A DNA stretch of 38,910 nucleotides. Source: a bacterium (GTDB lineage: Bacteria > Chlamydiota > Chlamydiia > Chlamydiales > SM23-39). A program made the position numbers and the translations under genes. Shown here piece after piece: positions 773 to 29,459 of this stretch (positions are counted from its first letter, which is position 1; the number at the start of each line of letters is the position of its first letter). The DNA is taken from positions 51,493 to 90,402 of the forward strand of contig JAJXYX010000031.1 in NCBI GenBank assembly GCA_021780355.1, given 5' to 3'. The notes under the pieces are model-generated. The model worked only from the letters and a program-made list of their open reading frames with translations, searched no databases and had not been told where the DNA came from.

Positions 773-790
773 AAAATAACTTCGATTGCG

Positions 791-827
791 CCCCGCTTTT
801 ATTTATTAAAATAGAAGCGGGGTTTTT
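791..827 (+). terminator. Rho-independent terminator
   Basis: A 12-bp stem (CCCCGCTTTTAT at 791-802 pairing with ATAGAAGCGGGG at 811-822, one G-U pair) is closed by an 8-base loop and followed by five T residues. It sits 18 bases after the stop of the upstream repeat gene and separates it from the 2511-aa gene. Confidence 0.85.
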
Positions 828-927: not shown

Positions 928-3900
928 GTGGCTGAATTTAATAATTCTTGGAATTACGGTTATATTTTAAATCAAGATGGTTTGCTTTTGATCGGAGCTT
1001 CAAGCGGTAGCCCTCAAGCTTCTTTTCTGACTTCTTCTTCAGGCACTCTCTCTTATACGTTCGGTCCAGGTTCGATCAATATTGATGTGAATCTCAGCAG
1101 TTCATTTTTTAATCCTATCCAAGTGGCCTACGGCGGAACTGGTTTGACTTTGTTGACAACGTATGGCGTTTTGCTCGGAGAAGGATCGAATAATATTCAT
1201 GTGACAGACCCTGGGACGAATGGGCAAACTTTAATTGCCTCTACGACGGGAGATCCGGCTTTTGCGACGATCACCTCTTCGGGCGGGACGGTCACATTTG
1301 CTTTTGGCCCCAATTCGCTCAATATCGAGGTAGGCGACTTTAATATAACATTTCCTGCTCTTTTATCCGTTAGTTCCGGAGGAACAGGTCAAACGGTTTT
1401 GACTCTTTACGGCGTGCTTTTAGGCGAAGGATCCAACCCCATTCATGTAACTGCTGCTGGGACGAATGGCCAGGTGCTCATTGCTTCAACAACAGGAGAT
1501 CCTCAATTTTCTACGATTACATCGACAGGCGGCACATTAACGTTTACATTTGGAGCCAGTTCGCTCAATATCGATGTCAACCTGTCTGGCAATAGTTTTT
1601 TCAATCCACTCCAGGTAGGCTATGGGGGAACGGGTCTTACTGTAATGACCGCTTATGGCGTGCTTCTCGGCGAAGGATCCAATAACGTGAATGTCACAGC
1701 GGCTGGAACCGACGGACAGCTCTTTCTCTCCTCTTCAACGGGAGATCCTCAATTCAATACTCTTTCATCCCCCTTAGGCACGTTGACGTTTAGCGCTGGC
1801 CACGGCAGTTTAGGAATCGATTTGAATATCCCTGTCGCCGTGACTTCTGGCGGTACAGGACAAACTATTTTGACAAGTTTTGGTGTGCTGATTGGCGAAG
1901 GCATCAACAGTGTGAACGTGACAGCTGCCGGAACGAATGGCCAAATGCTCCTTTCCGCTACAGGCGGAGATCCTGCTTTCACTACGGTGACTTCTGCTAG
2001 CGGGACGCTTACATTTACCTTTGGACCTAATTCTCTCAATATCGATGTAGCTTATTTTAGCAATACCTTTTTCAATCCTCTGCAGGTTAGCTATGGAGGA
2101 ACAGGTCGCACTGTGTTCACAGTTTCCGGAGTTTTGCTCGGTGAAGGAATTGATCCCATTAATGCAACAGCTGCTGGAACCGACGGCCAGGTCTTACTAG
2201 GTTCTTCAACAGGAGACCCTCAATTTAATACTCTTACTTCGTCGCTCGGCTCGCTAACTTTTAGCGTGGACCATAATAGTTTAAATATCGATCTGAATGT
2301 TCCGGTCTCTGTGGGATTTGGAGGAACGGGTCGTACGCTTTTGACGACCTATGGGGTTATGCTTGGCGAAGGTTCTAACAATGTGAATGTGACAGAAGCC
2401 GGAACCAATGGTCAGGTGCTTCTTGGATCCTCGACTGGCGATCCTCAATTTTCGACGATCACTTCGACGGGCGGCACGATCACCTTTACCTTTGGAGTGC
2501 ATTCGTTAAATCTTGAAGTGAATTTGTATGGCAGCTCGTTCTTTAATCCTTTGCAAGTCACAAGCGGCGGCACTGGTCGCACAGCACTTACAACTTTTGG
2601 CGTGCTTTTAGGAGAAGGTTCGAATCCAATCAATGCAACGGCTGCAGGAACGGATGGACAGCTCTTGATCGGATCTTCCACTGGTGATCCGAAATTCAAT
2701 ACTCTGACATCGTCTCTCGGCACTTTGACGTTTAGCGTATCGCATGGTGGTTTGAATATCGATCTAGTCGTCCCTGTCGCTGTGGGATTTGGCGGCACGG
2801 GAAGGACGCTTCTGACCGCCTATGGCATCTTGATAGGCGAAGGTTCGAATGGGGTCAATGTGACTGCGGCTGGCACAAATGGCCAAGTCCTCATTGCTTC
2901 ATCGACTGGAGATCCCAAATTCGCTACCATGACCTCGACGGGAGGCACGATCACGTTTACATGGGGCGTCAATTCTTTAAATCTTGAAGTGAATCTTTCC
3001 AGCTATTCATTTTTCAATCCGTTGCAAGTGAGTTACGGAGGAACAGGCCGCACTGTGCTTACTTCATTTGGCGTTTTGCTTGGCGAAGGATCGAACCAAA
3101 TCAACGCTACGGCAGCCGGAACCGATGGACAGATGCTCATCGGGTCATCGACGGGGGATCCTAAATTTTCCACCATGACCTCATCTTTGGGCACGCTGAT
3201 ATTCAGCGCGAGCCATAATGGTTTAAATATCGATTTAAATATTCCTGTCGCAGTGGGGTTTGGCGGAATAGGTCGCACAGCGCTCACAGCTTTTGGCGTT
3301 TTGCTTGGCGAAGGATCGAATCGAATCAATGTGACCGCGGCTGGAACGAATGGTCAAGTTTTTATCGCCTCGAGTACGGGAGATCCTAAATTTTCTACGA
3401 TCACCTCGACGGGAGGTACCCTTACTTTCGTCTCGGGGGTCAATTCGTTAAATATTGATTTAAATATTTTTGGACACACGTTTTTTAATCCTTTGCAGGT
3501 AAGCTACGGAGGGACAGGGCGCACTCTCTTGACGACTTTTGGCGTACTCATCGGCGAAGGCTCGAATGGGGTCAATGTAACGGCGGCTGGAACGAATGGA
3601 CAAGTCCTTATCGCCTCGACGACGGGCGATCCCAAATTTTTTACGATCACGTCGAGTAATCAAACGCTCACATTTGGCTGGGGGGCCAATTCGTTAAATA
3701 TTGATGTAGTAAACACTTCCGGTTTGGCCTTTCAAGGCAATAGCGGACTCGCCTCTCCCTCCGGAGGCGTATTAAATCTTTTGGGCTCTTCGCCGATTAC
3801 GACGACAGGATCTGGAGCTACGGTAACGGTCCAATTAAACGTTGTGCCCGTTGGCAATGGCGGCACAGGATTGACGGTGTTGACCACTTTTGGCGTTTTG

Positions 3901-6900
3901 CTTGGCGAAGGGTCGAATAATGTCAACGTCACAGCTCCTGGAACCAACGGACAGCTTTTACTCGCCTCGACGACGGGAGATCCCAAATTTGCTACGATTA
4001 GCTCGACTGGAAATACCGTAACGTTTTCGTTCGGTCCTAATTCCTTAAATCTTGAGGCCTTGCCTAGCATTCCTATTCCTCTGCCTTTGTCTCTTGGAGG
4101 CACTGGCCGTACGGTGATGACGACGTTTGGCGTGCTGATTGGCGAAGGATCCAATGGTCTCAACGTCACAGCGCCCGGTACAAATGGTCAAGTGCTCATC
4201 GCGTCTTCGACAGGAGATCCAAAATTTGCCACGATTACTTCAACGGGGGGCACTCTCACCTTTACGGTTGGGGTCAACTCGTTGAACATGGATATCAACC
4301 TGTATAACAATACCTTTTTGAATCCGCTTCAAGTGGGCAATGGTGGTACTGGACGTACGCTGCTGACGACGTTTGGCGTTTTGCTTGGCGAAGGATCGAA
4401 TAATATCAATGTGACGGCGCCAGGCACGAATGGGCAAATTCTTTTAGCTTCGACGACTGGGGATCCAAAATTTGCGATCCTCACTTCGACCGGAGGAACG
4501 GTCACTTTTATGGTCGGGCCTAATTCGCTCAATATTGAAGTGAATATTTTCACCAATACGTTTTTCAATCCTTTGCAAGTGGCCAACGGAGGTACGGGAA
4601 GAACGGTGCTGACGACCTATGGAGTGCTGCTTGGCGAAGGGTCTAATAACGTGAATGTAACCGCGGCGGGAACGAGCGGCCAGGTGTTGATTGCGTCTTC
4701 GACAGGAGATCCTAAATTTTCGACAATCACCTCGACGGGAGGAACTCTTGCTTTAAGTGTCGGCTTCAACTCGCTGAATATCGATGTGAACATCGCTGGC
4801 AGTACGTTTTTCAATCCTTTGCAGGTGGGCAACGGCGGTACGGGAAGAACTGTGTTGACGACCTTTGGCGTTTTGCTTGGCGAGGGGTCGAACGGCGTCA
4901 ACGTAACGGCGGCGGGAACAAATGGGCAAGTATTGATTGGCTCGACGACAGGAGATCCCAAATTTGCCTCGATCACCTCGACGGGAGGAACTCTTGCTTT
5001 AACCGCCGGCTTTAACTCGCTGAATATCGATGTGAACATCGATGGCAGTACGTTTTTCAATCCTTTGCAGGTAGGCAACGGCGGTACAGGGAGAACTTTG
5101 CTGACAACCTATGGCGTGCTGATCGGCGAGGGGTCGAACGGCGTCAATGTCACAGCGGCGGGAACGAATGGGCAAGTACTCATCGGTTCAACGACAGGCG
5201 ATCCTAGTTTTTCAACGATTACTTCGACAGGCGGCACTCTGACGTTTACGTTCGGTTCCAACTCGCTCAATATCGATGTCAATTTTACGGGCAGTACTTT
5301 CTTTAATCCCTTGCAAGTCAGCAACGGGGGGACTGGCAATACGGTCTTGACGACGTTTGGTGTACTCATCGGCGAAGGATCGAATAATGTAAATGTGACG
5401 GCGGCTGGAACGAATGGACAGATATTGATCGCCTCGACGACAGGAGATCCTAGTTTTTCGACGATCTCTTCGACTGGCGGCTCGCTCCTCTTTACATCAG
5501 GGCCTAACTCGCTCAATATCGACGTGAATCTAGCTGGCAACACATTTTTCAATCCGCTTCTCGTGGGCAATGGCGGCACTGGCTGTACGATATTGACTAC
5601 GTTCGGGGTGCTTTTGGGCGAAGGTTCGAACAATATCAACGTGACGGCAGCTGGAACCGATGGGCAAGTCTTGATGGGTTCTTCGACAGGAGATCCTCAG
5701 TTCAGTACGATCACATCTTCTTTGGGCTCCTTAGCTTTTACGGCAGGTCATGGCAGTTTAAATATCGATATCAATGGGGCTTTGAACCCTGAATTCGGGG
5801 GAACTAATCGGACGATTCTTACAGCTTTTGGCATTCTTTTGGGAGAAGGATCTAATGGTGTGAATGTCACAGCGGCGGGTACGAATGGCCAGGTGCTCAT
5901 CGCCTCGACAACTGGGGATCCTCAATTTGCGACGATTTCTTCTACGGGAGGAACGATTATTTTTTCTTCTGGCCCGAATTCGCTGAACCTCGATGTCAAC
6001 ATTGCCGCCAGCACATTCTTTAATCCTCTCCAAGTGGGCAATGGCGGGACGGGGCGCACGCTCTTGACAGCCTACGGCGTACTCATCGGCGAAGGTTCGA
6101 AGAACATCAATGTCACGGCGGCTGGCACGAATGGCCAGGTGCTTGTGGCTTCGACAACGGGTGATCCCAAATTTGCTACGATCACCTCGACGGGCAATAC
6201 GATGGTTTTCACCGCGGGATTCAACTCGCTCAATATCGATGTGAACCTTGCCGCCAGTACGTTTTTTAATCCTGTCCAAGTGGGCAATGGAGGTACGGGA
6301 CAAACGCTTTTGACGACATATGGCGTGCTCATCGGCGAAGGATCGAATAGCGTGCATGTCACAGCGGCGGGTACGAATGGCCAGGTGCTCATCGCCTCGA
6401 CAACTGGGGATCCTCAATTTGCGACGATTTCTTCTACGGGAGGAACGGTCCTTTTGGCTTTTGGTCCGAATTCGCTCAATATCGACGTGAATCTAACCGG
6501 AAGCAGCTTTTTTAATCCTTTGCAAGTCGGCAACGGAGGCACTGGCAATACGATTTTGACCACCTTTGGCGTACTGGTGGGCGAAGGCTCTAATAGCATT
6601 CGTGCGACCACGGCCGGTACCAATGGTCAGGTGCTGCTCGCAGCGACAAATGCAAATCCTGCCTTTGGAACGATCACCTCTTCGGGCAATACCGTGACTT
6701 TTTCTTTCGGGCCCAATTCGCTGAACATAGAATCTATCGATATTGATTTTGCTTTTGTGAATCTCGGCGGAACGGGACGTACAGTTTTGACCACTTTTGG
6801 TGTTCTCCTTGGCGAAGGATCGAACAATGTGAACGTGACAGCGGCAGGAACGAACGGTCAAGTCTTGCTCGCAGCGACGGGAGCCGATCCGAAATTTTCA

Positions 6901-8463: not shown

Positions 8464-8492
8464 ATGAATTTTTTCGGATAAGGTTTTTGTAT

Positions 8493-10424
8493 ATGGCTTA
8501 TAATAGCGGCAGTTTTAGTTTATTTTCTCAAACTGGGTTCACGACGAGTACGCAAATTTATGGCCAATTGATTAAGCCGAAGATTTCGCCTCCAGCTGGG
8601 GTGCAGTATACCAACGTTTATGCTAGTTTTTTAGCTCCCTCGGTGCAAAATCGTGCAATTAAAAATGTCTATGGGCTCTCTGTCGGATTGACGATGAACG
8701 CTGCTAGCAAAAGAGTGGGCAATGCGTATTCCTTATTTATCCAGCCCCCTTCTGTTTCCTCGGGTACATTGACCAACGTGTACTCCCTGTATGTGACTGA
8801 TCCTGTCAATAGCGGCGGTTCAGCTTTTGGCCAGCAGTTGTATTCTGCTTATATCGGAGGGGCTACGGGGATCGGGACGGCATCTCCGAAGAATGCTTTA
8901 GATGTAGCAGGTCCTGTGGCGGTAGGGACCTATGCTGGAGTGATTCAATCTCCAGGCAATAGCGGGATGCTCGTCAGCGGCGGCGTCGCAGTAGGGACAA
9001 CGACCCCGACTTATCAATTCGATGTTGAGGGGTTGATCAATACGCTTGAAATCTTGGCTCCAGCTACAACGATCAATAACCAATCTATGTATCTTGCGCA
9101 AGGGACTGATCAGGGCTACGGCGTGGGTCTCCCTGGTACCAATTTGACGTTGAGCACCACCAACACCCTTGCATTCGACACGGCTGCAAATGTGATTGCC
9201 TCGAGCAAAGGTTTTTCTGGGGGTATTTTTGATGGCCGCTATATTTACATGGTGCCGTACAATAATGGAGCTTACTATGGTCAAATTACAAGATATGATA
9301 CGTTTGGTAATTTTTCCTCCTCTTCTAGTTATGCTGTATTTAACACAAGTGTTTTGAATGCTAATGACATTGGATTTTCGACTGCTAGTTTCGATGGCAG
9401 GTATGTGTATTTTATGTCTTATACAAACGGATCAGTTTTTACATCCCGGATCATAAGATATGATACGACGCAATACTTTACAGTGACATTTAGCTACAGC
9501 ACATTTGCTGTGGGGGCCCAGGGTGTAGTTGGGGATAAAAGAGGATATAAGAGTTCCTTTTTTGATGGGAAATATGTGTATTTTATTGCAGAGGGCCTTG
9601 AAGGGATTACCTATTTTGGCACCATTTTGCGATATGATATCTCGCAACCTTTTACGAGTGCGTCGAGTTATGTTGTGTTCGATACGACATTGGTCAACGT
9701 CAACAGTCGGGGTTTTTTCGGCGCAGCTTATGATGGCCAATATCTGTATTTGGCTCCTTACCTTCAAAGCTCTGGAGTCCCTTCCGGCCTCGTTACGCAG
9801 TTTGATACGACTCAATCTTTTTCAGTCTCTACGAGTTATCGTACATTCGATTTGACTTTAGTCAATTCTAATTGCGTAGGGTTTCAAGGAGCTGTTTTTG
9901 ATGGGAGATTTATCTACTTTTGCAATTCGAGTTTTAATTATTTAACCAGATACGACACATTTGCTTCCTTTTCCTCGAGTTCCAGTTATCAAGTCATGAA
10001 CATAGGCGTTGCCAATTCCTGGGGCGGGGGGTTTGATGGAAGATACCTCTATTTGGTAGGTCCCAGTTTGATTACCCGCTATGACTCGAGTCTTCCTTTT
10101 ACCTATGGAACAAGCTATAGCTCATTGACAATTACAAATAGCTTTTCTAGAGGAACTTGTTTTGATGGAGCCAATATGTATTTCTTTTCAGGAGCGACAA
10201 GCTCGGGAATCGTGACTAAAATGCCGGCTAATCCCGGGCCTCCTGCAACAGCTCTTGCTATTGGTTATTCCGTAGGCAACTTTACTGTGACGGGGAATTT
10301 GTCTTTGATAGGAAATACAGATGTTGTAGCGACGAGCGGAAGCGGCACATTGTGTCCTACCTTAAGTTCTGGTTTTTTAGTAGTGAATATCAATGGAACG
10401 AATCAACGTATTCCTTATTTTTAG
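8493..10424 (+). CDS. Seven-blade propeller, tail-fibre-like protein A (643 aa)
   Basis: ATG at 8493 is chosen because both paralogs start the same way (M-A/G-Y-N) and AAGG lies at 8480-8483; a TTG two codons upstream has no support. Residues 1-240 contain spaced 'NVY.L.V' strands and two 'GIGT..P...LDV.G' type motifs (GIGTASPKNALDVAG and a second, weaker copy). These motifs are common in phage tail-fibre and related trimeric proteins. From residue 246 to about 600 there are exactly seven blades with the core FDGRYIY, usually followed by a 'RYDT' strand and 'SSSSYAVF', spaced about 45-55 residues apart. This pattern fits a seven-bladed beta-propeller. The protein ends 'LVVNINGTNQRIPYF', a tail also seen in paralog C. 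No signal peptide is present. It may be a receptor-binding or adhesive head associated with the giant fibre encoded just upstream; that role is inferred from context only. Confidence 0.85.
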   Translation: MAYNSGSFSLFSQTGFTTSTQIYGQLIKPKISPPAGVQYTNVYASFLAPSVQNRAIKNVYGLSVGLTMNAASKRVGNAYSLFIQPPSVSSGTLTNVYSLYVTDPVNSGGSAFGQQLYSAYIGGATGIGTASPKNALDVAGPVAVGTYAGVIQSPGNSGMLVSGGVAVGTTTPTYQFDVEGLINTLEILAPATTINNQSMYLAQGTDQGYGVGLPGTNLTLSTTNTLAFDTAANVIASSKGFSGGIFDGRYIYMVPYNNGAYYGQITRYDTFGNFSSSSSYAVFNTSVLNANDIGFSTASFDGRYVYFMSYTNGSVFTSRIIRYDTTQYFTVTFSYSTFAVGAQGVVGDKRGYKSSFFDGKYVYFIAEGLEGITYFGTILRYDISQPFTSASSYVVFDTTLVNVNSRGFFGAAYDGQYLYLAPYLQSSGVPSGLVTQFDTTQSFSVSTSYRTFDLTLVNSNCVGFQGAVFDGRFIYFCNSSFNYLTRYDTFASFSSSSSYQVMNIGVANSWGGGFDGRYLYLVGPSLITRYDSSLPFTYGTSYSSLTITNSFSRGTCFDGANMYFFSGATSSGIVTKMPANPGPPATALAIGYSVGNFTVTGNLSLIGNTDVVATSGSGTLCPTLSSGFLVVNINGTNQRIPYF

Positions 10425-10435
10425 GGTTTTTATCT

Positions 10436-12457
10436 ATGGGTTATAATGCAAACGGTCTATCCCTGTTTAACCAAAATTCTTCGGCTGCGAATCTTTATGT
10501 TACGCACAATAATACGGTGTTTTATAGACCGCAGGCTGCTTTTGGGTGGACCTCAGCTTACGGTCAATCGATCTCTCCGCTTTTATTGACGACTTCCGCA
10601 GGGACAGTTTCTTTTGCTTATGGGCAAAAGATTTTCGGTTCGATCAGCTCAAGTTCTACGATTTCCAATGTTTATGGGCTCAATGCCAGTGTGAATATCA
10701 CAGGAGGAACTGTTTCGAGCGTTTATAGTTTATATGTTACTGCTCCAACGCAAACGGCAGGATCGATTGCTAATAATTATACAGCTTACTTTGGATTGCC
10801 CACGGTAGGTGCAAACCAAGGCGGCGTGGGCATGGGGACTACGACGCCAACGAACGCTTTAGATGTTTATGGCGGTATGTCCTTGGGCAGTTTTGCAGGG
10901 TCCCAAACGATCTCTTTTGGCATCGTCGCTGTCGGCGGCCTTGTGGCGACCACTCCTTACATGGGAGTGGGAACTCCTCATCCTACTTTTTATACAGACA
11001 TTCAAGGGACGATGCAAGCTGGTGCGGCTTATGGATGGATGCCGATGGGGATCCAACAAAAAGGCACGCTATCTCAAGGATGGAATTCTTTGGGCGGAGG
11101 CACTGTTGGCAATAGTAAACAGATCACTACTCTTTCGGTGTCTATTTATACTCCGCAGCTCATACAACCATTTGGTATTAGCTTCGGAAATAACTGGAGT
11201 TCAGCTGGATTTGATGGGCGATATGTTTATTATGCTCCTTCGCAACTTTTAAATGATACTTATCCAGGTAATTTTATTAGATATGACACCACATTACCTT
11301 TTACCGTCTCGACTAGCTATTCTTATTTTAATATGACGATCGTGAACAGCAATTGCACGAACATTTTTGGCGGTTGTTTTGACGGCAGATATATTTATAT
11401 GTGCACGTATGATACGTCTTTTTTAGTCGCTAACTATCTTTTTATAAGGTATGATACATGGTCTACCTTTAATCAAGTTTCTAGTTATTCTACTTTTGAT
11501 GTCAGGCTAGTCAATAGCAGTTTGAATATATTGATTTCTCCCATATTTGAAGGTTCTTACATTTATTTTGGATCTCTTTTAGCTACCGCAGTGGTTCGCT
11601 ATTCCATCGATTCCCCTTTTACATCCTCATCCAGTTATCAAGTTTTTTATGTTTCTAGTCTTGTGTCGGGCATGCAAAACGTTCAGACTCTAGGTTGCGA
11701 TGGGAGATACCTTTATATAACAGGACAAGGGAGTCATACGAGCAATTTTATTGTTTCGTATGATATAACAAAGGATTTTAGTTCGCTTTCTAGTTATTCT
11801 AGTTTTAGTCTTTTTAATATAAATGGGTTTTATGCTGATTTGTTTCAGGGGATGGCTTTTGATGGAAGATTTATGTATTTTGCTCCTTTAGGTAATTATT
11901 TGGGTTTTTTCAGCGGCCAGCTTTTGAGATATGATACAACCCTTCCATTTACCTCTTCGACAAGCTATGCATTTGTTGATATGCAAGGTTATCAAGGATA
12001 TAATAATACAGGTTGGCGAGGGATTTTTTTTGATGGCAGATATATATATGTTATCCCCTCTGACAACGGCTTAGCATTAGGATTGGGTGTTCTGGCGCAA
12101 TATGATACACTATTACCCTTTAGCATCACCATAGGGTTTACTTTTTTACAGTTTCCTGCAGTAAATAGTAATTTGATCTCTTTTTCAGGGGCTGTTTATG
12201 ATGGGAACTACGTTTATTTGCCGCCTAATTTTTATCAATGGATCATTCGTATTGATGCCTATCGAGGCTATCCATTATCTAGCTTATTTGCTTCGAATCA
12301 GGCATCGAATGGTTTTACTTTAGCCACGGGCATTACCAATCCGACGTTCTCGCCTACCGTGTCGGCGGGGACGATACAAATCCCGTCTCTTCCTGTTGGT
12401 TATATCATTTTGCAGTCAGCGCCGTATGTATTTCGTAAAATTCCTTATTACAATTAA
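10436..12457 (+). CDS. Seven-blade propeller, tail-fibre-like protein B (673 aa)
   Basis: The frame is open further upstream, but ATG at 10436 is preferred. It has TTAGGG at 10420-10425 overlapping the previous stop, and it gives the N-terminus 'MGYNANGLSLFNQNS' that matches the two paralogs. The N-terminal region (1-250) carries 'NVYGLNASVNI', 'SVYSLYVTAP' and a 'GMGTTTPTNALDVYG' motif. Seven propeller blades begin near residue 259 (FDGRYVYYAP) and end near 588 (YDGNYVYLPP). The third blade has FEGSYIY and the fourth CDGRYLY in place of the consensus. The last residues are 'FRKIPYYN', so the 'NGT' part of the C-terminal tail is lost but the KIP.Y end is kept. There is no signal peptide. Blades of A, B and C have diverged strongly outside the core motif, so the three may bind different ligands; that is inference. 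Confidence 0.85.
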   Translation: MGYNANGLSLFNQNSSAANLYVTHNNTVFYRPQAAFGWTSAYGQSISPLLLTTSAGTVSFAYGQKIFGSISSSSTISNVYGLNASVNITGGTVSSVYSLYVTAPTQTAGSIANNYTAYFGLPTVGANQGGVGMGTTTPTNALDVYGGMSLGSFAGSQTISFGIVAVGGLVATTPYMGVGTPHPTFYTDIQGTMQAGAAYGWMPMGIQQKGTLSQGWNSLGGGTVGNSKQITTLSVSIYTPQLIQPFGISFGNNWSSAGFDGRYVYYAPSQLLNDTYPGNFIRYDTTLPFTVSTSYSYFNMTIVNSNCTNIFGGCFDGRYIYMCTYDTSFLVANYLFIRYDTWSTFNQVSSYSTFDVRLVNSSLNILISPIFEGSYIYFGSLLATAVVRYSIDSPFTSSSSYQVFYVSSLVSGMQNVQTLGCDGRYLYITGQGSHTSNFIVSYDITKDFSSLSSYSSFSLFNINGFYADLFQGMAFDGRFMYFAPLGNYLGFFSGQLLRYDTTLPFTSSTSYAFVDMQGYQGYNNTGWRGIFFDGRYIYVIPSDNGLALGLGVLAQYDTLLPFSITIGFTFLQFPAVNSNLISFSGAVYDGNYVYLPPNFYQWIIRIDAYRGYPLSSLFASNQASNGFTLATGITNPTFSPTVSAGTIQIPSLPVGYIILQSAPYVFRKIPYYN

Positions 12458-12471
12458 ATAGTTGGTACGTT

Positions 12472-14412
12472 ATGGCATATAATGCAGGAGTTTCTACTTT
12501 ATTTAATAAACCAGTGAATACGAATTCGGCTTATGCTGACAGCATAAACCCAACATTTTCGTTTTCTGGCAGTATTAATTCTTTGTTTGGTACGTATATT
12601 GATCCCATTATTAATATCAATTCGACAGGATCGATTGTTAATTTATACTGTCAATCTGTGACTCCAACCATCAACATAGGCTCTGGAACGATTACTCAAT
12701 TGAATGCTGTCAATGTCATCGGCCCTCAGGCTTTAGCTGGGAATATCTCAAATGCCTATTCTTTATATGTCAATCCCTTTAGCGGTTCAGGAACTGTTTT
12801 GAATAATTTCACGGCGTATTTTGAAGGATCGGTCGGAATTGGCACGACCACTCCGGTGAGCGCTTTAGATGTGGCGGGAACGATGTCTGTGGGCACTTAC
12901 GCTGGAGCGATTACCTCGACGGTTTCTCAATTCGTAATTTCTGGCGCTTTGGGGATCGCTACGGCTACCCCCTCTTATCTCGTGGATGTGAATGGTATTG
13001 CTGCTGCTAGACAAATGTTCTCGCCGCAAACAACGCGTGTCAGTCAAATGGCTCAGCTCGCTTCAGGATTTGATCAGAATATCGGCGGGGGGATGCCCGG
13101 CATGAATAAAGGGATTGGTACGTTTTCATGTTCCATTTTCAGTGTTCAAACGAGTTTTCCCAGTTTGAGCGGCGGTTTTGGAAATAGGACTTATGATGGG
13201 CGATATGTTTACTTAGCTTCTGGAAATTCGGCGATTTTGACTAGATATGATACGTTTCTTCCCTTTAGTAGCAGCGTTAGCTATCAGACATTTGATGTGA
13301 GCCGTCTCATAGGTGCGTCCGTGGCTGCTGGTTCAGCGCTGGGATTTGATGGGATGTTTGTTTATCAACAAGTAGGTGTGATTTATTTTATAAAATATAA
13401 TACGTCGCTCTCTTTTACAAACACGAATAGTTATCAGGTTTTTAATTTAACGGCTTTGAATGCGAGCGTTTCAAATGCTTATGGTACATATTTTGATGGA
13501 ACTTATCTTTATATTTCTCCAAGAGGTACACCACCTTCATTGATCCGTTATAATATAAACCTCCCTTTTAGCTTATCTTCTAGTTATCAGGTATTTTTGA
13601 ATCCCCCTAGTTCCATAGGAATTCGTGGGAATAATGGGTATGGGGGAGGAACTTTTGACGGGCGATATATGTATTTTGTCCCTCAAAGCACAGCGACTGG
13701 AGCTGTTTATAATGCTATCCGTTATGATACATTTGCGACGTTCGCTGTATCTGCAAGCTATACTACCTTTAATTTGGTCTCGCTCGGAGGCAATACTCCT
13801 GTGGAGATGAACGGATTAGTATTTACCGGTAGGTATGTCTATTTTTGTCCCTTTAATGCTACAACCATTCCTGGACAATTGATACAGTATGATACAACCC
13901 TTCCTTTTACTTCTGCTTCTAGTTATGCGATTTTTAATATAACCCCCTATTATACGAGTGGAGCGTCCCCTATAGGGACTGTCTTTGATGGACGTTTTCT
14001 GTATCTTCTGATGTGGAATACGCAGACGCTAGTCCGTTATGACACCCTTCTTCCTTTTACTGCATCTACAAGCTATCTGTTTGCCAATTTAAGTCAAATT
14101 TTGTCGGCGTATACCTTTAGTGTCGGTGGAACGTTTGACGGACGTTATCTCTATCAGGCGGCTGGCTCTGCCGGGGTGTTGGTTCGTATAGATACCTACT
14201 GCGGTCCTCAAGCTACGTATCTCAATGCCTTTTCTGCTCCTCAAGGATTAACTCTCCTCAATGGAGGGAGTTTTAGTTTAGTCAATACCTCTACTTCGGG
14301 AAGCGCGATCAGCGGGACGGCGACTGTAAGCGCGGTGCCTTCGCAGGTCGCTAATTATTTAGTTGTAAATATTAACGGAACCTCTAGAAAAATTCCTTTT
14401 TATAACATGTAA
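12472..14412 (+). CDS. Seven-blade propeller, tail-fibre-like protein C (646 aa)
   Basis: This is the third tandem paralog, beginning 14 bases after B with ATG at 12472. The N-terminal region contains 'AVNVIGPQ', 'NAYSLYVNPF', 'GIGTTTPVSALDVAG' and a second, weaker copy 'GIATATPSYLVDVNG'. Seven blades run from residue 241 (YDGRYVYLAS) to about 600, the last core being FDGRYLYQAA near residue 555. One blade has FTGRYVYF and another FDGMFVYQ. The protein ends 'LVVNINGTSRKIPFYNM', almost the same as protein A. No signal peptide, transmembrane helix or catalytic motif is visible. It is the last gene of the giant-1 transcription unit, and an A/U-rich hairpin lies 8 bases after its stop. Confidence 0.85.
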   Translation: MAYNAGVSTLFNKPVNTNSAYADSINPTFSFSGSINSLFGTYIDPIININSTGSIVNLYCQSVTPTINIGSGTITQLNAVNVIGPQALAGNISNAYSLYVNPFSGSGTVLNNFTAYFEGSVGIGTTTPVSALDVAGTMSVGTYAGAITSTVSQFVISGALGIATATPSYLVDVNGIAAARQMFSPQTTRVSQMAQLASGFDQNIGGGMPGMNKGIGTFSCSIFSVQTSFPSLSGGFGNRTYDGRYVYLASGNSAILTRYDTFLPFSSSVSYQTFDVSRLIGASVAAGSALGFDGMFVYQQVGVIYFIKYNTSLSFTNTNSYQVFNLTALNASVSNAYGTYFDGTYLYISPRGTPPSLIRYNINLPFSLSSSYQVFLNPPSSIGIRGNNGYGGGTFDGRYMYFVPQSTATGAVYNAIRYDTFATFAVSASYTTFNLVSLGGNTPVEMNGLVFTGRYVYFCPFNATTIPGQLIQYDTTLPFTSASSYAIFNITPYYTSGASPIGTVFDGRFLYLLMWNTQTLVRYDTLLPFTASTSYLFANLSQILSAYTFSVGGTFDGRYLYQAAGSAGVLVRIDTYCGPQATYLNAFSAPQGLTLLNGGSFSLVNTSTSGSAISGTATVSAVPSQVANYLVVNINGTSRKIPFYNM

Positions 14413-14419
14413 TATAGAA

Positions 14420-14443
14420 AACTAAAAAACAGCTTTTTTAGTT
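14420..14443 (+). terminator. Weak terminator-like hairpin
   Basis: A perfect 10-bp stem AACTAAAAAA / TTTTTTAGTT with a CAGC loop follows the stop of propeller protein C. It has few G-C pairs and no separate U tract beyond the stem, so it may act poorly or only attenuate transcription. Confidence 0.4.
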
Positions 14444-14519
14444 ATATGGATTCTTGGTTTTATTTATGAATGTTTTGTGATATCTGTTTTTTTAATATTG
14501 TTTTGTCTTAAGGGTGTTT

Positions 14520-17500
14520 GTGCCTAATTTTAATAATTCCTGGAACTACGTTTATATTTTAAATCAAAACGGTTTGCTGCTGATTGGGGATTCTAGTTCG
14601 AATCCACAAGCTGCATTTTTGACTTCAACGGGAGCTACCCTCACTTATTCTTTGAGTCCTGGGGCGATCGACATGGAGATTAATGGTTCGGGGGGATTTT
14701 TTGGCCCTCTCCAAGTTCTTTATGGCGGCATAGGAAGGACATTTTTAACGACTTTTGGCGTCCTTTTAGGTGAAGGTTCCAATCGAGTTCATGTAACGGC
14801 TGCAGGGACCCATGGCCAGCTGCTCATTGCATCGACAACAGGCGATCCCATTTTTGCGACGCTGACATCCAGCCGAGGCTCTTTACTGATTACTGCCGGC
14901 CCCAATTCGCTCAATATTGAGGTTTCTTCATCTAATTTCACATTTCCTACGTTTTGGTCTGTTCCTATCGGCGGCACAGGGCGTACGGCGCTCACAGCTT
15001 ATGGCGTCCTCTTAGGGGAAGGGAGCAATAGCGTGCATGTCACAGCTCCTGGAACCAATGGCCAGCTTTTTTTAGGAGCGACAGCGGCGGACCCTGCTTT
15101 TCAATCAATCTCTTCGACGGGAGGCACTCTCGTTTTTACGAGAGGAAATAACACTTTAAATATCGATCTGAATGTTTCTAACATTGCGCTTTTCAACCCC
15201 TTGCAAGTCATTTATGGCGGTACGGGACGTACGATTTTGACTACTAATGGCGTGCTCCTTGGCGAAGGATCGAACCGTGTTCATGTAACGCCTTTCGGAA
15301 CGGATGGCCAGGTGCTTTTGGGTTCCTCGACTGGAGACCCTATCTTCAACACGATCGTCTCTTCTTTAGGTGCGCTCGTTTGGTCGGCAGGCCCTAATAG
15401 TTTAGGTGTAGATCTGAACATTCCTATTCCTATTCAATGGGGCGGTACGAGCCAAACGACCCTTACGACCTTTGGAGTTCTCATTGGCGAAGGTTCAAAT
15501 TCTCTTGATGTCACAGCCCCTGGAACCGATGGCCAAGTGCTTCTTGCTGCAACGGGCTCGGATCCTGCTTTTGCAACGATTACTTCGACAGGGGCTACCG
15601 TATTGATCACGCCAGGTCCTAACTCGCTGAACCTAGAGGCAGATTTTTATGGCACAACCTATTTTAATCCTTTGCTAGTAGGCAATGGAGGAACAGGACA
15701 ACAAGTTCTCTCTCCATCTGGCGTTTTACTCGGTGAAGGTTCTAACTCGATCAATGTCACAGCTCAGGGAACAGACGGTCAATTGTTGATCGGCTCGTCC
15801 ACGGGAGATCCTGCCTTTTCGACAGTGACTTCCTTTTTAGGAACATTGAGTTTTGCTTTTAGCCCCGGCAGTTTAGCGATAGATGTGAATGGTCCTTTAA
15901 TCCTTCCTTTCGGAGGCACTGCCGAGACTGTGCTGACGAGATTTGGCGTTTTACTCGGCGAAGGTTCAAATGGCGTTCAAGCGACAGCTTCGGGAACTAG
16001 CGGCCAGCTTCTGATCGCGTCTTCGACAGGAGATCCTCTTTTTGCCTCGATCACATCTTTAGCGAATACTTTAACGTTTACGTTCGGTCCCCATTCGCTC
16101 AATATCGAGGTGAATCTTTCGGAAACCACCTTGTGGAATCCTCTTCCTGTCAACAAGGGAGGTTTGGGGCAAACGGTCTTGACTGTATATGGCGTTTTGC
16201 TTGGAGAAGGATCGAGCCAGATCCACGTCGCCGCCGCTGGGACGGATGGTCAGCTCTTTTTGGGTTCGTCGACAGGAGATCCTCAATTTAATACAGTCAC
16301 ATCTTCGTTAGGAGCGTTAGCATTTTCTGCGGGTCACGGCAGTTTAAATGCAGATCTTAGAGTTCCTGTGCTTACGAGGTTCGGCGGATCTGGCGCCACG
16401 TTATTCACAACCTATGGCGTCCTCCTCGGCGAAGGGTCGAATGGCGTCCATGTAACGGCTCCAGGAACGAATGGTCAAATGCTCATCGGTTCGACGACAG
16501 GCGATCCGAGTTTTTCCTCTTTAACCTCTGTGAACCGTACCATCACGTTTACTTTTGGAGTTAACTCTCTCAATGTGGAAGCGAATGTGTATGGCCATAC
16601 GTTTTTTAATCCTTTGCAGGTGAGTTTTGGCGGTACGGGAGAAACTCTTTTAACCCTCTACGGTGTCTTGCTAGGGTCTGGATCTAAAGGAGTCAATGTC
16701 ACGGCCTTTGGTACAGACGGTCAGCTTTTTATCGGTTCCTCTACAGGCTCTCCTCAATTTAATACGTTGACATCTTCTTTATCGACGATTTTGTTGGCTC
16801 CTGGCCACAGCAGTTTAAATCTCGATCTCAATGGGGTTTTACCTATCAATTGGGGCGGAACCGCCCGGACTTTGTTGACAGCTTTTGGGGTGCTTTTTGG
16901 GGAAGGTTCTAGTAGTGTGAATGCTGCGGCTCCGGGGACAAGTGGGCAAACGCTCATCGCTTCGACAGGCAGCGATCCAAAATGGATGAATATCACCTCA
17001 ACGGGCGGGACCTTGACGTTTACCTATGGAGTAGGATCGCTGAATATGGAGGCGATTTTTACGCCGAGCACGTTTTTTAATCCTTTGCTTGTCGGCAATG
17101 GAGGAACTGGTCTTACGCTTCTTACTCTCTATGGCGTCCTTTTAGGCGAGGGATCGAATAATATTGGTCAGACGGCTGCTGGTACAAATGGCCAGGTGCT
17201 GATGGCTGCGACAGGGGCTAATCCAAAATTTTCGACGATATCTTCTAGCAAACAAACGCTAGTTTTTATGCCAGGGCCCAATTTTTTGAATATGGATGTG
17301 GTGAGCACTCCGACATCGTTTCAAACGAATAGCGGTACCGCCTCGCCTCTAGGAGGTTTGCTGAATCTATTTAGCAGCTCGCCGCTTTCAACGGCGGGCT
17401 CAGCCTCTACACTCACGATCCAGCTGGGCGTAGCTCCTGCGGCCAATGGCGGCACAGGATTGACTCTTCTCACAAGATATGGAGTGCTCATTGGGGAGGG

Positions 17501-20500
17501 ATCTAATGCTCTGCATGTCACAGCGGCGGGGACAAATGGTCAAGCGCTGATCGCGTCTTCGACAGGAGATCCTAAGTTCATCACCATTACATCGGTAGGC
17601 CAAACGCTGAGTTTCACGTGGGGGGCTAATTCTTTAAACATTGAAACCTCGACAACTTTCCCTCTCTCTGTGAGCACAGGCAGTACCGGCCGGACCGTTT
17701 TTACTACGTTTGGCGTTCTCATTGGCGAGGGGAGCAATAGCATCAACGTGACGGCCGCTGGAACGAATGGCCAGTTACTCGTCGCCTCGACGACAGGGGA
17801 TCCTGCCTTTGCTACGATCACCTCTTCCGGCGGTACACTGACCTTTGTGCTTGGCGTCAATTCCTTAAGGATTACAGATCTTCCTTTTTCGAGTTTGGGA
17901 TTTTTTAATCCTTTGCAAGCCAGTTTCGGCGGCACAGGACGAACCCTCCTTACTAGGTTTGGCGTGCTCATCGGCGAAGGGTCGAATGCAGTCGATGTCA
18001 CAGCGCCTGGAACCCATGGCCAGATGCTCATTGCGTCTACGACCGGTGATCCTCAATTTGCTACCATTACATCTATAGGGGGGACCATTACCTTTACGAC
18101 AGGTCCCAATGCCCTAGCTATGAATGTGAATTTCGGCACTGCGATATTTAATCCTTTGCAAGTGGGAAGCGGCGGTACAGGGAAAACGGTGTTGACCGTT
18201 TTTGGCGTGCTGATCGGCGAGGGGTCCAATAATCTCAATGTCACCGCTCGAGGAACGCATGGTCAAACGTTGATAGCCTCCACAACGGGAGACCCGATAT
18301 TTGCCACGATCACATCGACAGGAAATACGATTACTTTTAGATTTGGCCCCAACTCTTTAAATATCGATGTGGTCAATTTATTTACTGGCACATATTTTAA
18401 TCCTTTGCAAGTCGTTAACGGGGGAACGGGGCGAACTCTTCTCACGACCTTTGGTGTGCTGATCGGAAAAGGTTCCAATAATATCAATGTCGCCGCTCGA
18501 GGAACTCATGGTCAAACCCTCCTTGCATCTACGACTGGCGATCCCAAATTCGCTAGCATTACATCGACCGGAAACACTCTCACTTTTAGATTTGGCCCCA
18601 ATTCTTTAAATGTCAATGTGATCAATTTATTTACCGGTACTTACTTTAATCCTCTCAGCGTGAGCAATGGCGGAACGAGGAGAACTCTTCTCACAACGTT
18701 TGGCGTTCTCCTTGGAGAAGGCTCGAATGCAGTCAACGTCACGGCGAGAGGGACACATGGCCAAGTGCTGATTGCTTCGACAACCGGAGATCCTAAATTT
18801 TCTACGATCACGTCTACGGGAGGTACTCTTACCTTTAGATTCGGCCCGAATTCTTTGAACATCGATGCAACAGCCCTGTTTAATAAAACTTTTTTCAATC
18901 CGTTGCAAGTGAATACGGGGGGGGCAGGACGAACCTTGCTGACAACATATGGCGTGCTCCTTGGAGAAGGCTCGAATCAAGTCAATGTCACGGCGAAAGG
19001 GACGCACGGCCAAGTGCTGATTGCCTCGACAACCGGAGATCCTAAATTTTCTACGATTACGTCTACGGGAGGCACTCTTACTTTTACATTCGGCCCCAAT
19101 TCGCTCAATATCACTACAAATATTTATAATCATACGTTTTTTAATCCTTTAAGGGTTGTCACGGGAGGAACTGGCCGCACGGTTCTCACGGCTTTTGGAG
19201 TGTTATTGGGAGAGGGGTCCAATCAAATTCGGGTGACAGCCGCGGGGACGAATGGCCAATTGTTGATCGGCTCATCAACGGGCGATCCGAAATTCAATAC
19301 CATCACATCTTCTTTAGCTACCTTGACCTTTACTATTTCTCCAGGCGGTTCAGGAATCAATATCGATGTGAATGGCGCTCTTCGCGTGGCTTTTGGGGGA
19401 ACGGGGCAGACCATCCTTACAACCTTTGGCGTGCTGATCGGCGAGGGATCGAGAAATGTGAATGTAACCGCCGCGGGCACGCATGGTCAGTTGCTGATTG
19501 CGGCAACAGGCGCAGATCCTCAGTTTTCAACTCTTACGTACACGGGAGTTACGTTAACCTTTCAATTCGGTCCTAATTCTTTAAACATCGATGTGATCAA
19601 CTTATTTAATGGGACATATTTTAACCCATTGCAAGTCGTCAATGGAGGCACAGGGCGAACGATTTTTACAGCCCGAAGAGTCCTTCTTGGCGAAGGATCT
19701 AATGCGCTCAATACTACGCTTGCGGCAACTCACGGTCAAGTGCTGATCGGGTCTACGACCGGCGATCCAACATTTACTACGATCACCTCGACGGGCAATA
19801 CGCTGACATTTAAATTCGGTCCGAATTCTCTAGATATCGAGACGACGATTTTTGCGAGCACATTTTTTAAACCCTTGCTAGTGGGCAATGGAGGAACAGG
19901 CCGAACCTTGCTCACAACCTTTGGCGTTCTTTTGGGTGAAGGATCCAATAATATCAATGTCACAGCTCGAGGAACCCGCGGCCAAGTGCTGATCGCGTCT
20001 ACGACTGGCGATCCTAAATTTTCCACCATCACTTCGACCGGCGGTACGTTGACTTTTGTGTTTGGCCCTAACGCCTTGAATGTCGATTGGACGCTCACGA
20101 ACTATTCGTTCTTCAAGCCTTTGCAAGTCAGTTATGGAGGCACGGGACGGACGATTTTGACGACCTTTGGCGTGCTGATCGGCGAAGGATCGAGCAATAT
20201 CAATGTTACAGCCGCGGGGACAAATGGCCAAGTGCTGATTGCTTCAACGACCGGCGATCCGAAGTTTGTCAACCTCACCTCTGTCGGGGGCACATTTACC
20301 TTCACATTTGGCGCCAATACGTTGAATATTGAAAGAGTTGAACTTGAGCTATACTCGGTAGATGAGGGGGGAACTAACCGCACTGTTTTGACAACCTTTG
20401 GCGTGCTGCTGGGCGAAGGATCAAACAGTGTCAACGTAACGGCGCCAGGAACGAACGGTCAACTTCTGATTGCCTCCACGACGGGAGATCCTGTATTTAA

Positions 20501-22067
20501 AACGATCACATCGACTGGAAATACGATTACCTTTTCTTTTGGCCCTAATTCTATCATTCTTAGTTCCAATGTTTTTACCAGCACGTTTTTTAATCCTTTG
20601 CTTGTCGGCAATGGAGGTACAGGACTAACCCTTTTGACAACGTTTGGTGTGCTGATTGGCGAAGGATCGAATAATCTTCATGTGACAGCAGCCGGAACAA
20701 ACGGCCAAGTGTTGCTGGCAGGAACGGGCGTCGATCCCAGATGGGGAACAATCACTTCTTCTGGAGGAACTTTAACCTTTGCTTTTGGAGCGCGCTCATT
20801 AAATATTGATGCGGTTCGAACCACGCTTCTTCCTATTCTCCGTGGAGGGACCAACCGTACCCTGCTGACAGCTTATGGCGTGCTCTTAGGAGAAGGCTCG
20901 AATGCAATCAATGTGACGGCGCCAGGAACTGATGGGCAGGTACTTATTGGCTCTTCAACCGGCGATCCGAAATTTAGCACGATCACCTCCTCTCAAGCGA
21001 CTTTATCCTTCACCTATGGCCATCATAGCCTAAATGTTGATCTCAATGGAATTCTGAACATCCAATGGGGCGGCACGAATCGGACGGTTCTGACTACATA
21101 CGGTGTTTTGCTAGGAGAAGGATCGAATAGTATTCAAGTAACAGCTCCCGGAACTAGCGGCCAACTATTGATTGCAGCCACAGGCGCTAATCCTGCCTTT
21201 GCGACGATCACCACTTCACTTTCTGCTCAAGGCAACGGGCTGAGTTTTACCTTTGGCCCAAACTCCTTGAATATGGATGTTTTCATTTCAGCTGCTAAAG
21301 TTAATGCTGGCGGCACAGGTAGGACTTTATTAACCACTTATGGTGTTTTAATAGGCGAAGGATCTAATCCTATCAACGCCACTGCGGCTGGGACAAACGG
21401 CCAGCTGCTCATCGGGGGCACAGCCGGCGATCCTGTTTTTGCCACTGTTACCTCGACAGGAAGTTCGATAGCCTTTACGCCTGGCGCCAATTCTCTGGAT
21501 ATTGCTGTGAATTTTTCAGGCGCTGCATTTTTTAACCCATTGATTATCAGTAATGGAGGGACAGGGGGTACTCTTCTGACGAGCTATGGCGTGCTGCTGG
21601 GAGAAGGGTCGAATCCTATCAACGTCACTGCAGCGGGCACAAACGGCCAATTGCTTTTGAGTGCAACGGGAGCCGATTCAAAGTTTGCGACGCTGACTTC
21701 GACAGGAGGCTCGTTTGTTTTTGCTTTTGGCCCGAATGGATTAAATATTGATACTTTCACTGGAGCCGCTAGTTATACGATCCTTAATATAAGCGCCGGA
21801 ACGACAGCAATTACAGCTAACTATGCATATTATTCGATTGATTCGAGCGGTGGTACCGTGACCTTGAATTTCCCTAATCCTCTTTCTTCGAGTAAATTTT
21901 GGACGATCAAAGATCGTACGGGTTATTCTTCTGTGTATCCTATTATTCTGACAACCGTTTTAGGAACGGTGACATTTGATGGAGAAACGGCTTTTAATTT
22001 AAATGTTCCTTTCGGTTCTTTGAATGTTTCTTATGATACTCTTACTTCGCGCTATGAGTTGTTCTAA
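14520..22067 (+). CDS. Giant tandem-repeat, tail-fibre-like protein 2 (2515 aa, 29 repeats)
   Basis: GTG at 14520 is preferred over the GTG at 14514. AAGGG at 14510-14514 then has a normal spacing, and the N-terminus (VPNFNNSWNYVYILNQNG) aligns with giant protein 1. The architecture copies protein 1: a cap at residues 1-68, 29 repeats, and a C-terminal domain from about residue 2414 ('FWTIKDRTGYSS', 'TVTFDGETAFNL', final 'YELF'). B-type units again occupy positions 3, 5, 7, 9, 19 and 26. The inserted segment in repeat 11 begins at residue 926 in both proteins. Differences include a block of repeats (about 14-18 and 20-22) with GTHGQ and basic loops (ARGTHGQ), and small expansions in repeats 19 and 27. 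There is no signal peptide or catalytic motif. It is probably a structural fibre or adhesin. It stands alone, with 107 bases upstream and 159 bases downstream free of genes. Confidence 0.9.
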   Translation: MPNFNNSWNYVYILNQNGLLLIGDSSSNPQAAFLTSTGATLTYSLSPGAIDMEINGSGGFFGPLQVLYGGIGRTFLTTFGVLLGEGSNRVHVTAAGTHGQLLIASTTGDPIFATLTSSRGSLLITAGPNSLNIEVSSSNFTFPTFWSVPIGGTGRTALTAYGVLLGEGSNSVHVTAPGTNGQLFLGATAADPAFQSISSTGGTLVFTRGNNTLNIDLNVSNIALFNPLQVIYGGTGRTILTTNGVLLGEGSNRVHVTPFGTDGQVLLGSSTGDPIFNTIVSSLGALVWSAGPNSLGVDLNIPIPIQWGGTSQTTLTTFGVLIGEGSNSLDVTAPGTDGQVLLAATGSDPAFATITSTGATVLITPGPNSLNLEADFYGTTYFNPLLVGNGGTGQQVLSPSGVLLGEGSNSINVTAQGTDGQLLIGSSTGDPAFSTVTSFLGTLSFAFSPGSLAIDVNGPLILPFGGTAETVLTRFGVLLGEGSNGVQATASGTSGQLLIASSTGDPLFASITSLANTLTFTFGPHSLNIEVNLSETTLWNPLPVNKGGLGQTVLTVYGVLLGEGSSQIHVAAAGTDGQLFLGSSTGDPQFNTVTSSLGALAFSAGHGSLNADLRVPVLTRFGGSGATLFTTYGVLLGEGSNGVHVTAPGTNGQMLIGSTTGDPSFSSLTSVNRTITFTFGVNSLNVEANVYGHTFFNPLQVSFGGTGETLLTLYGVLLGSGSKGVNVTAFGTDGQLFIGSSTGSPQFNTLTSSLSTILLAPGHSSLNLDLNGVLPINWGGTARTLLTAFGVLFGEGSSSVNAAAPGTSGQTLIASTGSDPKWMNITSTGGTLTFTYGVGSLNMEAIFTPSTFFNPLLVGNGGTGLTLLTLYGVLLGEGSNNIGQTAAGTNGQVLMAATGANPKFSTISSSKQTLVFMPGPNFLNMDVVSTPTSFQTNSGTASPLGGLLNLFSSSPLSTAGSASTLTIQLGVAPAANGGTGLTLLTRYGVLIGEGSNALHVTAAGTNGQALIASSTGDPKFITITSVGQTLSFTWGANSLNIETSTTFPLSVSTGSTGRTVFTTFGVLIGEGSNSINVTAAGTNGQLLVASTTGDPAFATITSSGGTLTFVLGVNSLRITDLPFSSLGFFNPLQASFGGTGRTLLTRFGVLIGEGSNAVDVTAPGTHGQMLIASTTGDPQFATITSIGGTITFTTGPNALAMNVNFGTAIFNPLQVGSGGTGKTVLTVFGVLIGEGSNNLNVTARGTHGQTLIASTTGDPIFATITSTGNTITFRFGPNSLNIDVVNLFTGTYFNPLQVVNGGTGRTLLTTFGVLIGKGSNNINVAARGTHGQTLLASTTGDPKFASITSTGNTLTFRFGPNSLNVNVINLFTGTYFNPLSVSNGGTRRTLLTTFGVLLGEGSNAVNVTARGTHGQVLIASTTGDPKFSTITSTGGTLTFRFGPNSLNIDATALFNKTFFNPLQVNTGGAGRTLLTTYGVLLGEGSNQVNVTAKGTHGQVLIASTTGDPKFSTITSTGGTLTFTFGPNSLNITTNIYNHTFFNPLRVVTGGTGRTVLTAFGVLLGEGSNQIRVTAAGTNGQLLIGSSTGDPKFNTITSSLATLTFTISPGGSGINIDVNGALRVAFGGTGQTILTTFGVLIGEGSRNVNVTAAGTHGQLLIAATGADPQFSTLTYTGVTLTFQFGPNSLNIDVINLFNGTYFNPLQVVNGGTGRTIFTARRVLLGEGSNALNTTLAATHGQVLIGSTTGDPTFTTITSTGNTLTFKFGPNSLDIETTIFASTFFKPLLVGNGGTGRTLLTTFGVLLGEGSNNINVTARGTRGQVLIASTTGDPKFSTITSTGGTLTFVFGPNALNVDWTLTNYSFFKPLQVSYGGTGRTILTTFGVLIGEGSSNINVTAAGTNGQVLIASTTGDPKFVNLTSVGGTFTFTFGANTLNIERVELELYSVDEGGTNRTVLTTFGVLLGEGSNSVNVTAPGTNGQLLIASTTGDPVFKTITSTGNTITFSFGPNSIILSSNVFTSTFFNPLLVGNGGTGLTLLTTFGVLIGEGSNNLHVTAAGTNGQVLLAGTGVDPRWGTITSSGGTLTFAFGARSLNIDAVRTTLLPILRGGTNRTLLTAYGVLLGEGSNAINVTAPGTDGQVLIGSSTGDPKFSTITSSQATLSFTYGHHSLNVDLNGILNIQWGGTNRTVLTTYGVLLGEGSNSIQVTAPGTSGQLLIAATGANPAFATITTSLSAQGNGLSFTFGPNSLNMDVFISAAKVNAGGTGRTLLTTYGVLIGEGSNPINATAAGTNGQLLIGGTAGDPVFATVTSTGSSIAFTPGANSLDIAVNFSGAAFFNPLIISNGGTGGTLLTSYGVLLGEGSNPINVTAAGTNGQLLLSATGADSKFATLTSTGGSFVFAFGPNGLNIDTFTGAASYTILNISAGTTAITANYAYYSIDSSGGTVTLNFPNPLSSSKFWTIKDRTGYSSVYPIILTTVLGTVTFDGETAFNLNVPFGSLNVSYDTLTSRYELF
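14724..21758 (+). repeat. In-frame array of 29 repeats in giant protein 2
   Basis: The units have the same design as in giant protein 1 (mostly 246 bp, with 225-bp B-type units at the same ordinal positions), but nucleotide identity between neighbouring units is lower. A subgroup, units 15-18, shares 'FRFGPNSLN' or related endings and GTHGQ, showing local expansion after the array was formed. Confidence 0.85.
18917..18924 (+). repeat. G8 homopolymer inside giant gene 2
   Basis: Eight consecutive G residues encode the start of repeat 18 (residues 1466-1469), where the usual GGTG reads GGAG. A tract of this length inside a coding region can slip during replication. A one-base change would truncate the protein at about 58 percent of its length. 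Confidence 0.9.
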
Positions 22068-22099
22068 TTTTTTTATTGTTACGTCAAAATTTATACAAC

Positions 22100-22123
22100 A
22101 ACGCTAGGTGCAGTGGTTTTTTT
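22100..22123 (+). terminator. Possible weak terminator after giant gene 2
   Basis: An imperfect short stem (AACGCT pairing with AGTGGTT, with a G bulge and a G-U pair) and a six-base loop lead directly into seven T residues. The T run is good but the stem is poor. Confidence 0.3.
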
Positions 22124-22164
22124 ATTTATATATAATGTTAATTGGTTTTTTTGATATTTCTTCT

Positions 22165-22182: not shown

Positions 22183-22226
22183 AAAATCTAAATTTTATTA
22201 TTCTGACATTTTTGGTGACGTTTTTT

Positions 22227-28275: not shown

Positions 28276-28297
28276 CCGTATGCAATAAGAGGTTTAG

Positions 28298-29452: not shown

Positions 29453-29459
29453 GGTTTTT

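What the first reader, a model, noticed from the sequence alone, without database searches (positions are those of the whole stretch)
928..22067. Two 2.5-kilo-residue proteins colinear repeat by repeat through 29 repeats
Giant proteins 1 (2511 aa) and 2 (2515 aa) both have a 68-residue cap, 29 repeats and a C-terminal domain of about 100 residues. Short B-type repeats sit at the same positions (3, 5, 7, 9, 19, 26). Non-canonical linkers occur at matching positions (1, 12, 23, 25, 27). The repeat-11 insertion begins at residue 926 in both. Tandem arrays normally gain and lose units freely. Keeping exact register after so much sequence divergence implies strong selection on fibre length or on position-specific contacts, perhaps a heteromeric fibre with two matched strands.
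Basis: seen in the sequence. Interest (0 to 1): 0.85.

Follow-up and report, generated by a model that had tools for sequence, protein, structure and literature searches.

The report
Twin giant repeat fibres, register frozen
A Chlamydia-related bacterium carries two giant phage-tail-fibre-like proteins that still have the same 29 repeat units in the same order of unit types, although their DNA has otherwise diverged past the point where silent sites remember a common ancestor.

Summary
Genes g1 (928-8463, 2511 aa) and g2 (14520-22067, 2515 aa) each have 29 units whose lengths agree within 2 residues at every position. Short B units sit at 3, 5, 7, 9, 19 and 26 in both, and the insertion is in unit 11 of both. 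The assembly is sound here: the longest exact repeat is 92 bp.
The stronger reading fails its own test. Units of one type are no more similar at the same position than at other positions (A units p = 0.11). Silent sites are saturated with no positional memory (0.662 v 0.666). The tree groups units by type and by local within-gene patches, not by position. What is conserved is unit number and type order.
This is not unique: three ~1500-residue paralogues upstream (k1-k3) all have 13 full units with the insertion in unit 7.
Best explanation: both descend from one 29-unit, probably homotrimeric, tail-fibre-like protein. Count stayed locked because units became too different for unequal crossing-over, probably helped by selection on fibre length. 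A matched heteromeric fibre is unsupported.
Host: Chlamydiota. The array lies beside chlamydial-plasmid genes; no phage tail was found.

The parts
928..8463 (+). g1: giant fibre-like protein, 2511 aa: 68-aa cap, 29 units, gp10-like C-terminal domain
   Evidence: ORF and unit parse; C-terminal profile to T4 gp10 residues 48-138, E 5e-5
14520..22067 (+). g2: giant fibre-like protein, 2515 aa, colinear with g1 unit by unit in length and type
   Evidence: start choice
3541..3891 (+). g1 unit 11 with ~35-40 aa insertion (same kind of insertion as in unit 7 of k1-k3)
17133..17480 (+). g2 unit 11 with the matching insertion
5864..5955 (+). g1 unit 20 side of a 92-bp identical tract shared with unit 22 (gene conversion inside g1)
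6356..6447 (+). g1 unit 22 side of the same tract
8493..10424 (+). p1: fibre-type N-terminal part plus predicted 7-bladed beta-propeller
   Evidence: TM normalised to target up to 0.72
10436..12457 (+). p2: paralogue of p1
12472..14412 (+). p3: paralogue of p1
2..772 (+). s0 (3' part; the rest lies beyond a scaffold gap): short array with a different C-terminal domain, which Rhabdochlamydia plasmid proteins share
22227..23891 (+). s1: 5-unit array with recent AB-dimer duplication (units 1/3 and 2/4 96% identical DNA)
24304..27057 (+). s2: 9-unit array with recent duplications, C-terminal domain of the g type
27067..30662 (+). v1-v3: three paralogues similar to myovirus virion structural proteins
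790..823 (+). terminator-like hairpin between s0 and g1
   Evidence: 1 found, 0.3 expected

Best explanation
g1 and g2 are old duplicates of one gene that already had 29 units with the present order of unit types. Since the split, the unit sequences have turned over through saturating substitution plus patches of gene conversion between units of the same gene, while unit count and type order stayed fixed. Count is locked mainly because the units are too different at DNA level to misalign and cross over unequally; purifying selection on the fold, and probably on total fibre length, removes the rest. Each protein most likely makes its own homotrimeric beta-rich fibre, built like a phage tail fibre: cap, rod of 82/75-residue units, and a C-terminal domain related to T4 gp10. 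It is made by an intracellular chlamydial symbiont as an orphan adhesin-like fibre rather than as part of a phage tail. Shown: register, saturation, lack of position memory, one conversion tract, gp10 similarity, plasmid-type neighbours, phage relatives of the unit. Inferred: trimer, rod, exposure on the cell or in the host, role in attachment.
For: Register. All 12 B units of both genes form one clade, 98/89, so the type order predates the split. No unit-level position memory. A 92-bp identical island between g1 units 20 and 22, flanked by much lower identity, and the same extra residue in a VxNLFxGTYFNPL linker in g2 units 15, 16 and 20, show conversion without change of count. Within g1 and g2 the median longest shared DNA stretch is 10-11 bp and the best unit pair is 85% identical, while s1, s2 and k4 have unit pairs at 91-96% and unequal counts. 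k1-k3 repeat the pattern: 13 units, insertion always in unit 7, saturated synonymous sites. C-terminal domain to T4 gp10, E 5e-5. The unit occurs in phage contigs next to tail-fibre genes and once per protein on Rhabdochlamydia plasmids.
Against: No structure supports the trimer: the three-unit model is unusable (pLDDT 45, pTM 0.19) and the unit profile has no significant solved relative (best E 0.13). There is only one genome, so no orthologue shows whether 29 is kept between species (4 of 234 Chlamydiota genomes have the unit at all). Gene conversion shows that recombination does act in these arrays, so locking by divergence alone may not suffice.
Confidence: 0.62

Rival explanations
1. Stabilising selection on exact fibre length (a ruler) is the main cause: paralogous fibres must reach equally far, so any unit gain or loss is purged, in g1/g2 (29) and in k1-k3 (13).
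For: Five arrays in two size classes show no net unit change after saturation although recombination acts in g1 and neighbours in the same cluster do change count.
Against: Low DNA identity between units predicts the same result without selection on length. Small arrays of similar build (s1 with 5 units, s2 with 9) are not length-matched.
Confidence: 0.35
2. Heteromeric fibre: g1 and g2 chains lie side by side with unit n touching unit n, so position-specific contacts hold the register. For k1-k3 the counterpart would be a heterotrimer.
For: Exact length and type register; matched sets of 2 and 3 length-equal paralogues.
Against: No same-position similarity within a unit type (for k1-k3 z -0.7 to 0.5); no correlation of charge or hydropathy. 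Known phage fibres of this kind are homotrimers (own knowledge).
Confidence: 0.1
3. The two genes are a recent duplicate that has not had time to change unit number.
For: Equal count and shared C-terminal domain (63% identity).
Against: pS 0.71, dS about 2.2 and beyond reliable estimation; four-fold sites 0.662 different against 0.705 for random pairing; longest exact g1-g2 match 26 bp.
Confidence: 0.02
4. The genes are tail-fibre genes of a resident prophage or contractile injection system, and unit number follows from the virion geometry.
For: v1-v3 resemble myovirus virion structural proteins; gp10-like domain; units in phage fibre modules.
Against: No tail sheath and no baseplate J protein in the 97%-complete genome; no phage head, packaging or tail-tube gene recognised among the large ORFs of the contig that were scanned.
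Confidence: 0.08
5. Assembly or collapse artefact created equal arrays.
For: Two scaffold gaps lie in nearby repeat arrays.
Against: g1 and g2 contain only one exact repeat of 40 bp or more (92 bp) and share no exact stretch above 26 bp, so reads of normal length place units uniquely.
Confidence: 0.02

Closest known systems
Phage tail-fibre / virion proteins with GGTG...GVLLGxGT...GTxGQVL units (IMG/VR contigs L049-L073)
   Same: Same unit sequence at 38-59% identity, same MATNNxIN start in some, located in fibre modules
   Different: Phage proteins have one or two recognised units, not 29; g1/g2 are not linked to a recognisable tail or head module
T4 baseplate wedge protein gp10 (homotrimer), N-terminal region 48-138
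   Same: C-terminal domain of g1/g2/s2 matches at E 5e-5
   Different: In gp10 the domain lies near the N-terminus of a baseplate protein; here it ends a giant repeat rod
Rhabdochlamydia plasmid proteins WP_194845910.1 (L037) and WP_215216387.1 (L038), annotated hypothetical
   Same: One copy of the same unit (about 45-55% identity) and the C-terminal domain type of s0/s1/k4; plasmid backbone shared with this contig (AAA_25 ATPase 52% identical; outer membrane protein and ParA)
   Different: 280 aa with one unit, no array
Repeat proteins with conserved units (PMC5120217)
   Same: Units diverge after duplication and are then kept
   Different: That work finds each unit conserved by position between species; here only type and length are, between paralogues

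Membership tests
Phage tail-fibre-like protein | Sequence unit shared with phage fibre/virion proteins | tested here: met
   25 viral loci encode the unit; proteins carrying the unit or lying next to it match tail-fibre families
Phage tail-fibre-like protein | C-terminal domain of a known tail/baseplate protein | tested here: met
   T4 gp10, E 5e-5
Phage tail-fibre-like protein | Homotrimeric beta rod | tested here: inconclusive
   Monomer model pLDDT 45; multimer prediction not available
Phage tail-fibre-like protein | Encoded with a phage tail or contractile system | tested here: not met
   No sheath, no baseplate J in the genome
Chlamydial plasmid protein Pgp3 | Recognisable similarity to solved Pgp3 or its family profile | tested here: not met
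   Cap and unit profiles find no such chain in the PDB; no such Pfam hit for g1 or the Rhabdochlamydia proteins
Trimeric autotransporter adhesin | YadA-like membrane anchor and stalk repeats | tested here: not met
   No Pfam family in g1; C-terminus is gp10-like
Trimeric autotransporter adhesin | Sec signal peptide | not tested
   By eye the N-terminus (MAEFNNSWNYGYILNQDG) has no signal-like segment; no predictor was run

The most novel reading that the evidence does not exclude
An intracellular bacterium builds length-matched sets of giant phage-derived fibres (two of 29 units, three of 13 units), in which unit number is under selection as a molecular ruler or for co-assembly of different chains, while unit sequences are free to turn over and to be converted.
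Probability: 0.25. Interest if true: 0.72.

Novelty: new variant of a known kind. Interest (0 to 1): 0.52.

Why it matters
It separates two things usually conserved together in repeat proteins: number and order of units on one side, sequence identity of each unit on the other. Here the first survives past synonymous saturation while the second is lost, in two independent sets of paralogues, next to arrays that do change count. That makes the locus a natural test of whether array length is held by selection or only by loss of recombination. It also shows a chlamydial symbiont carrying about 130 tail-fibre units in one cluster linked to plasmid-type genes, a scale found in no other of 234 Chlamydiota genomes searched.

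Tried and rejected
1) Same-position orthology of units: tested by identity ranks, shared-rare-residue permutations, tree, four-fold sites; rejected for A units. Only the six B linkers gave a nominal signal (p 0.005 among six block tests). 3) Charge or hydropathy matching between the genes: none. 4) AlphaFold on three units with 71 rows: useless, not searched further. 5) Unit or cap against the PDB: no significant relative. 6) N-glycosylation-like N-x-S/T in each unit: 25 of 29 in g1 but 14 of 29 in g2, so not a shared constraint. 7) Whole g1 as query in genome contigs: nothing; the unit alignment worked. 8) Synteny of flanking genes in relatives through the SNF2 gene: only 35-42% identity, paralogue-level hits, not informative. 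9) Papers on chlamydial fibre repeats: none found in the open library.

Full report
What is there. The window is C42:51493-90402 of a 1.96-Mb draft genome. The contig ends at the window's right edge. Among 234 genomes of the same phylum, only four carry the repeat unit. Two of these hold contigs of the same lengths as the Candidatus Rhabdochlamydia plasmids NZ_CP075586 and NZ_CP075588, and they are placed in the same order as the window's genome, so the host is a chlamydia of that wider group.

g1 (928-8463) and g2 (14520-22067) each have a cap, 29 units and a C-terminal domain, with unit lengths equal within two residues at every position. The summed length difference is 14 residues, while 200,000 permutations never went below 26. 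B units (75-77 aa) are at 3, 5, 7, 9, 19 and 26 in both, and the long unit is number 11. There are 13 small indel runs and no whole-unit change.

It is not an assembly effect. The two 100-base gaps on the contig lie in the arrays k4 and s0, whose units are near-identical. g1 and g2 hold a single exact repeat over 40 bp (92 bp), and the longest exact g1-g2 match is 26 bp.

The sequence does not keep position. For units of the common type, same-position identity is 0.677 against 0.673 for other positions; the permutation p is 0.11 with a score that rewards rare shared residues. Four-fold sites differ at 0.662 for same-position pairs, 0.666 for others, 0.637 within g1 and 0.668 within g2. The tree puts all 12 B units of both genes in one clade (98/89), so the order of types is ancestral; the A units are largely unresolved, with small within-gene groups such as g1 18/20/22 and g2 15/16/20.

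Why the count is stable. Unequal crossing-over needs long identical stretches (own knowledge). Between units of g1 or g2 the median longest shared stretch is 10-11 bp, so count would be expected to be stable once units had diverged. Yet recombination still occurs: a 92-bp identical island joins g1 units 20 and 22, flanked by much lower identity, and a one-residue linker insertion has spread among g2 units 15, 16 and 20. In the same cluster s1, s2 and k4 show unit pairs at 91-96% DNA identity, i.e. recent duplication, and different counts. So count changes happen at this locus, but not in the five big arrays. That is the best argument for selection on length; it is suggestive, not decisive.

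A second colinear set. k1, k2 and k3 (contig 21752-35281, outside the window) are 1491, about 1494 and 1500 aa, each with 13 full units plus a degenerate one, and a 124-125-aa unit always in seventh place. Their aa identity is 52-55% with saturated synonymous sites, and again there is no same-position signal. The finding is therefore a property of the cluster, not of one pair.

What the proteins are. The C-terminal domain of g1/g2 matches T4 gp10 residues 48-138 (E 5e-5). The unit is found in viral contigs within fibre modules. p1-p3 between g1 and g2 have a fibre-like N-terminal part and a predicted seven-bladed propeller. v1-v3 resemble cyanomyovirus virion proteins. The genome has no sheath or baseplate J protein but has a FHIPEP-family export gate protein, the type III secretion family. 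Upstream lie chlamydial-plasmid-type genes: an AAA_25 ATPase 52% identical to the Rhabdochlamydia plasmid one, an outer membrane protein of the same family, ParA and UPF0137. I read these as phage-derived fibres taken over by a plasmid-linked element of an intracellular bacterium; secretion route and target are inference.

If the rise per residue is like that of T4 long tail fibres (own knowledge, roughly 0.055-0.07 nm per residue), 2511 residues would give about 140-170 nm. This is an estimate only.

Verdict.

Noticed in passing
G000:C42:21752-35281 (L010:1752-15281): Three consecutive ~1500-aa paralogues (k1-k3) with 13 full units, the insertion always in unit 7, and a glycine-rich C-terminus (Gly_rich_2 in k1): a second length-matched set.
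   Followed up: yes
G000:C42:46241-50495 (L011), partly behind an N gap: k4: another array with near-identical units; a 100-N scaffold gap sits inside it, so its unit count is unknown.
   Followed up: partly
window:8493-14412 and window:27067-30662: Paralogues also come in threes here (p1-p3, v1-v3), like k1-k3; whether the triplets mean heterotrimers or simple tandem duplication is open.
   Followed up: no
G000:C42:40465-45960 (L011:465-5960): Chlamydial-plasmid-type genes (AAA_25 ATPase, Legionella_OMP, ParA, UPF0137) next to the array, in an order like that of Rhabdochlamydia plasmids: integrated plasmid or large plasmid.
   Followed up: partly
G000:C42:213-17045 and 35777-40066; window:31088-31942: Many glycosyltransferases (GT25, GT11, GT2) and sugar-nucleotide genes with heptose-type family hits (below curated cut-offs) flank the fibre cluster; the related MAG ZJ1.bin9 (L044) also has a GT25-like gene beside its array. 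Possible glycan partner of the fibres.
   Followed up: partly
L037:1647-4248 and 6436-7284, L038:21304-22245: Rhabdochlamydia plasmids carry runs of ~280-aa paralogues; the four of this type that were scanned have a K1-lyase_C domain (Pfam PF24146), another phage-fibre-type module, annotated hypothetical.
   Followed up: no
window:37534-38757: AAA ATPase matching a PADLOC candidate defence model (PDC-S01, E 4e-175).
   Followed up: no
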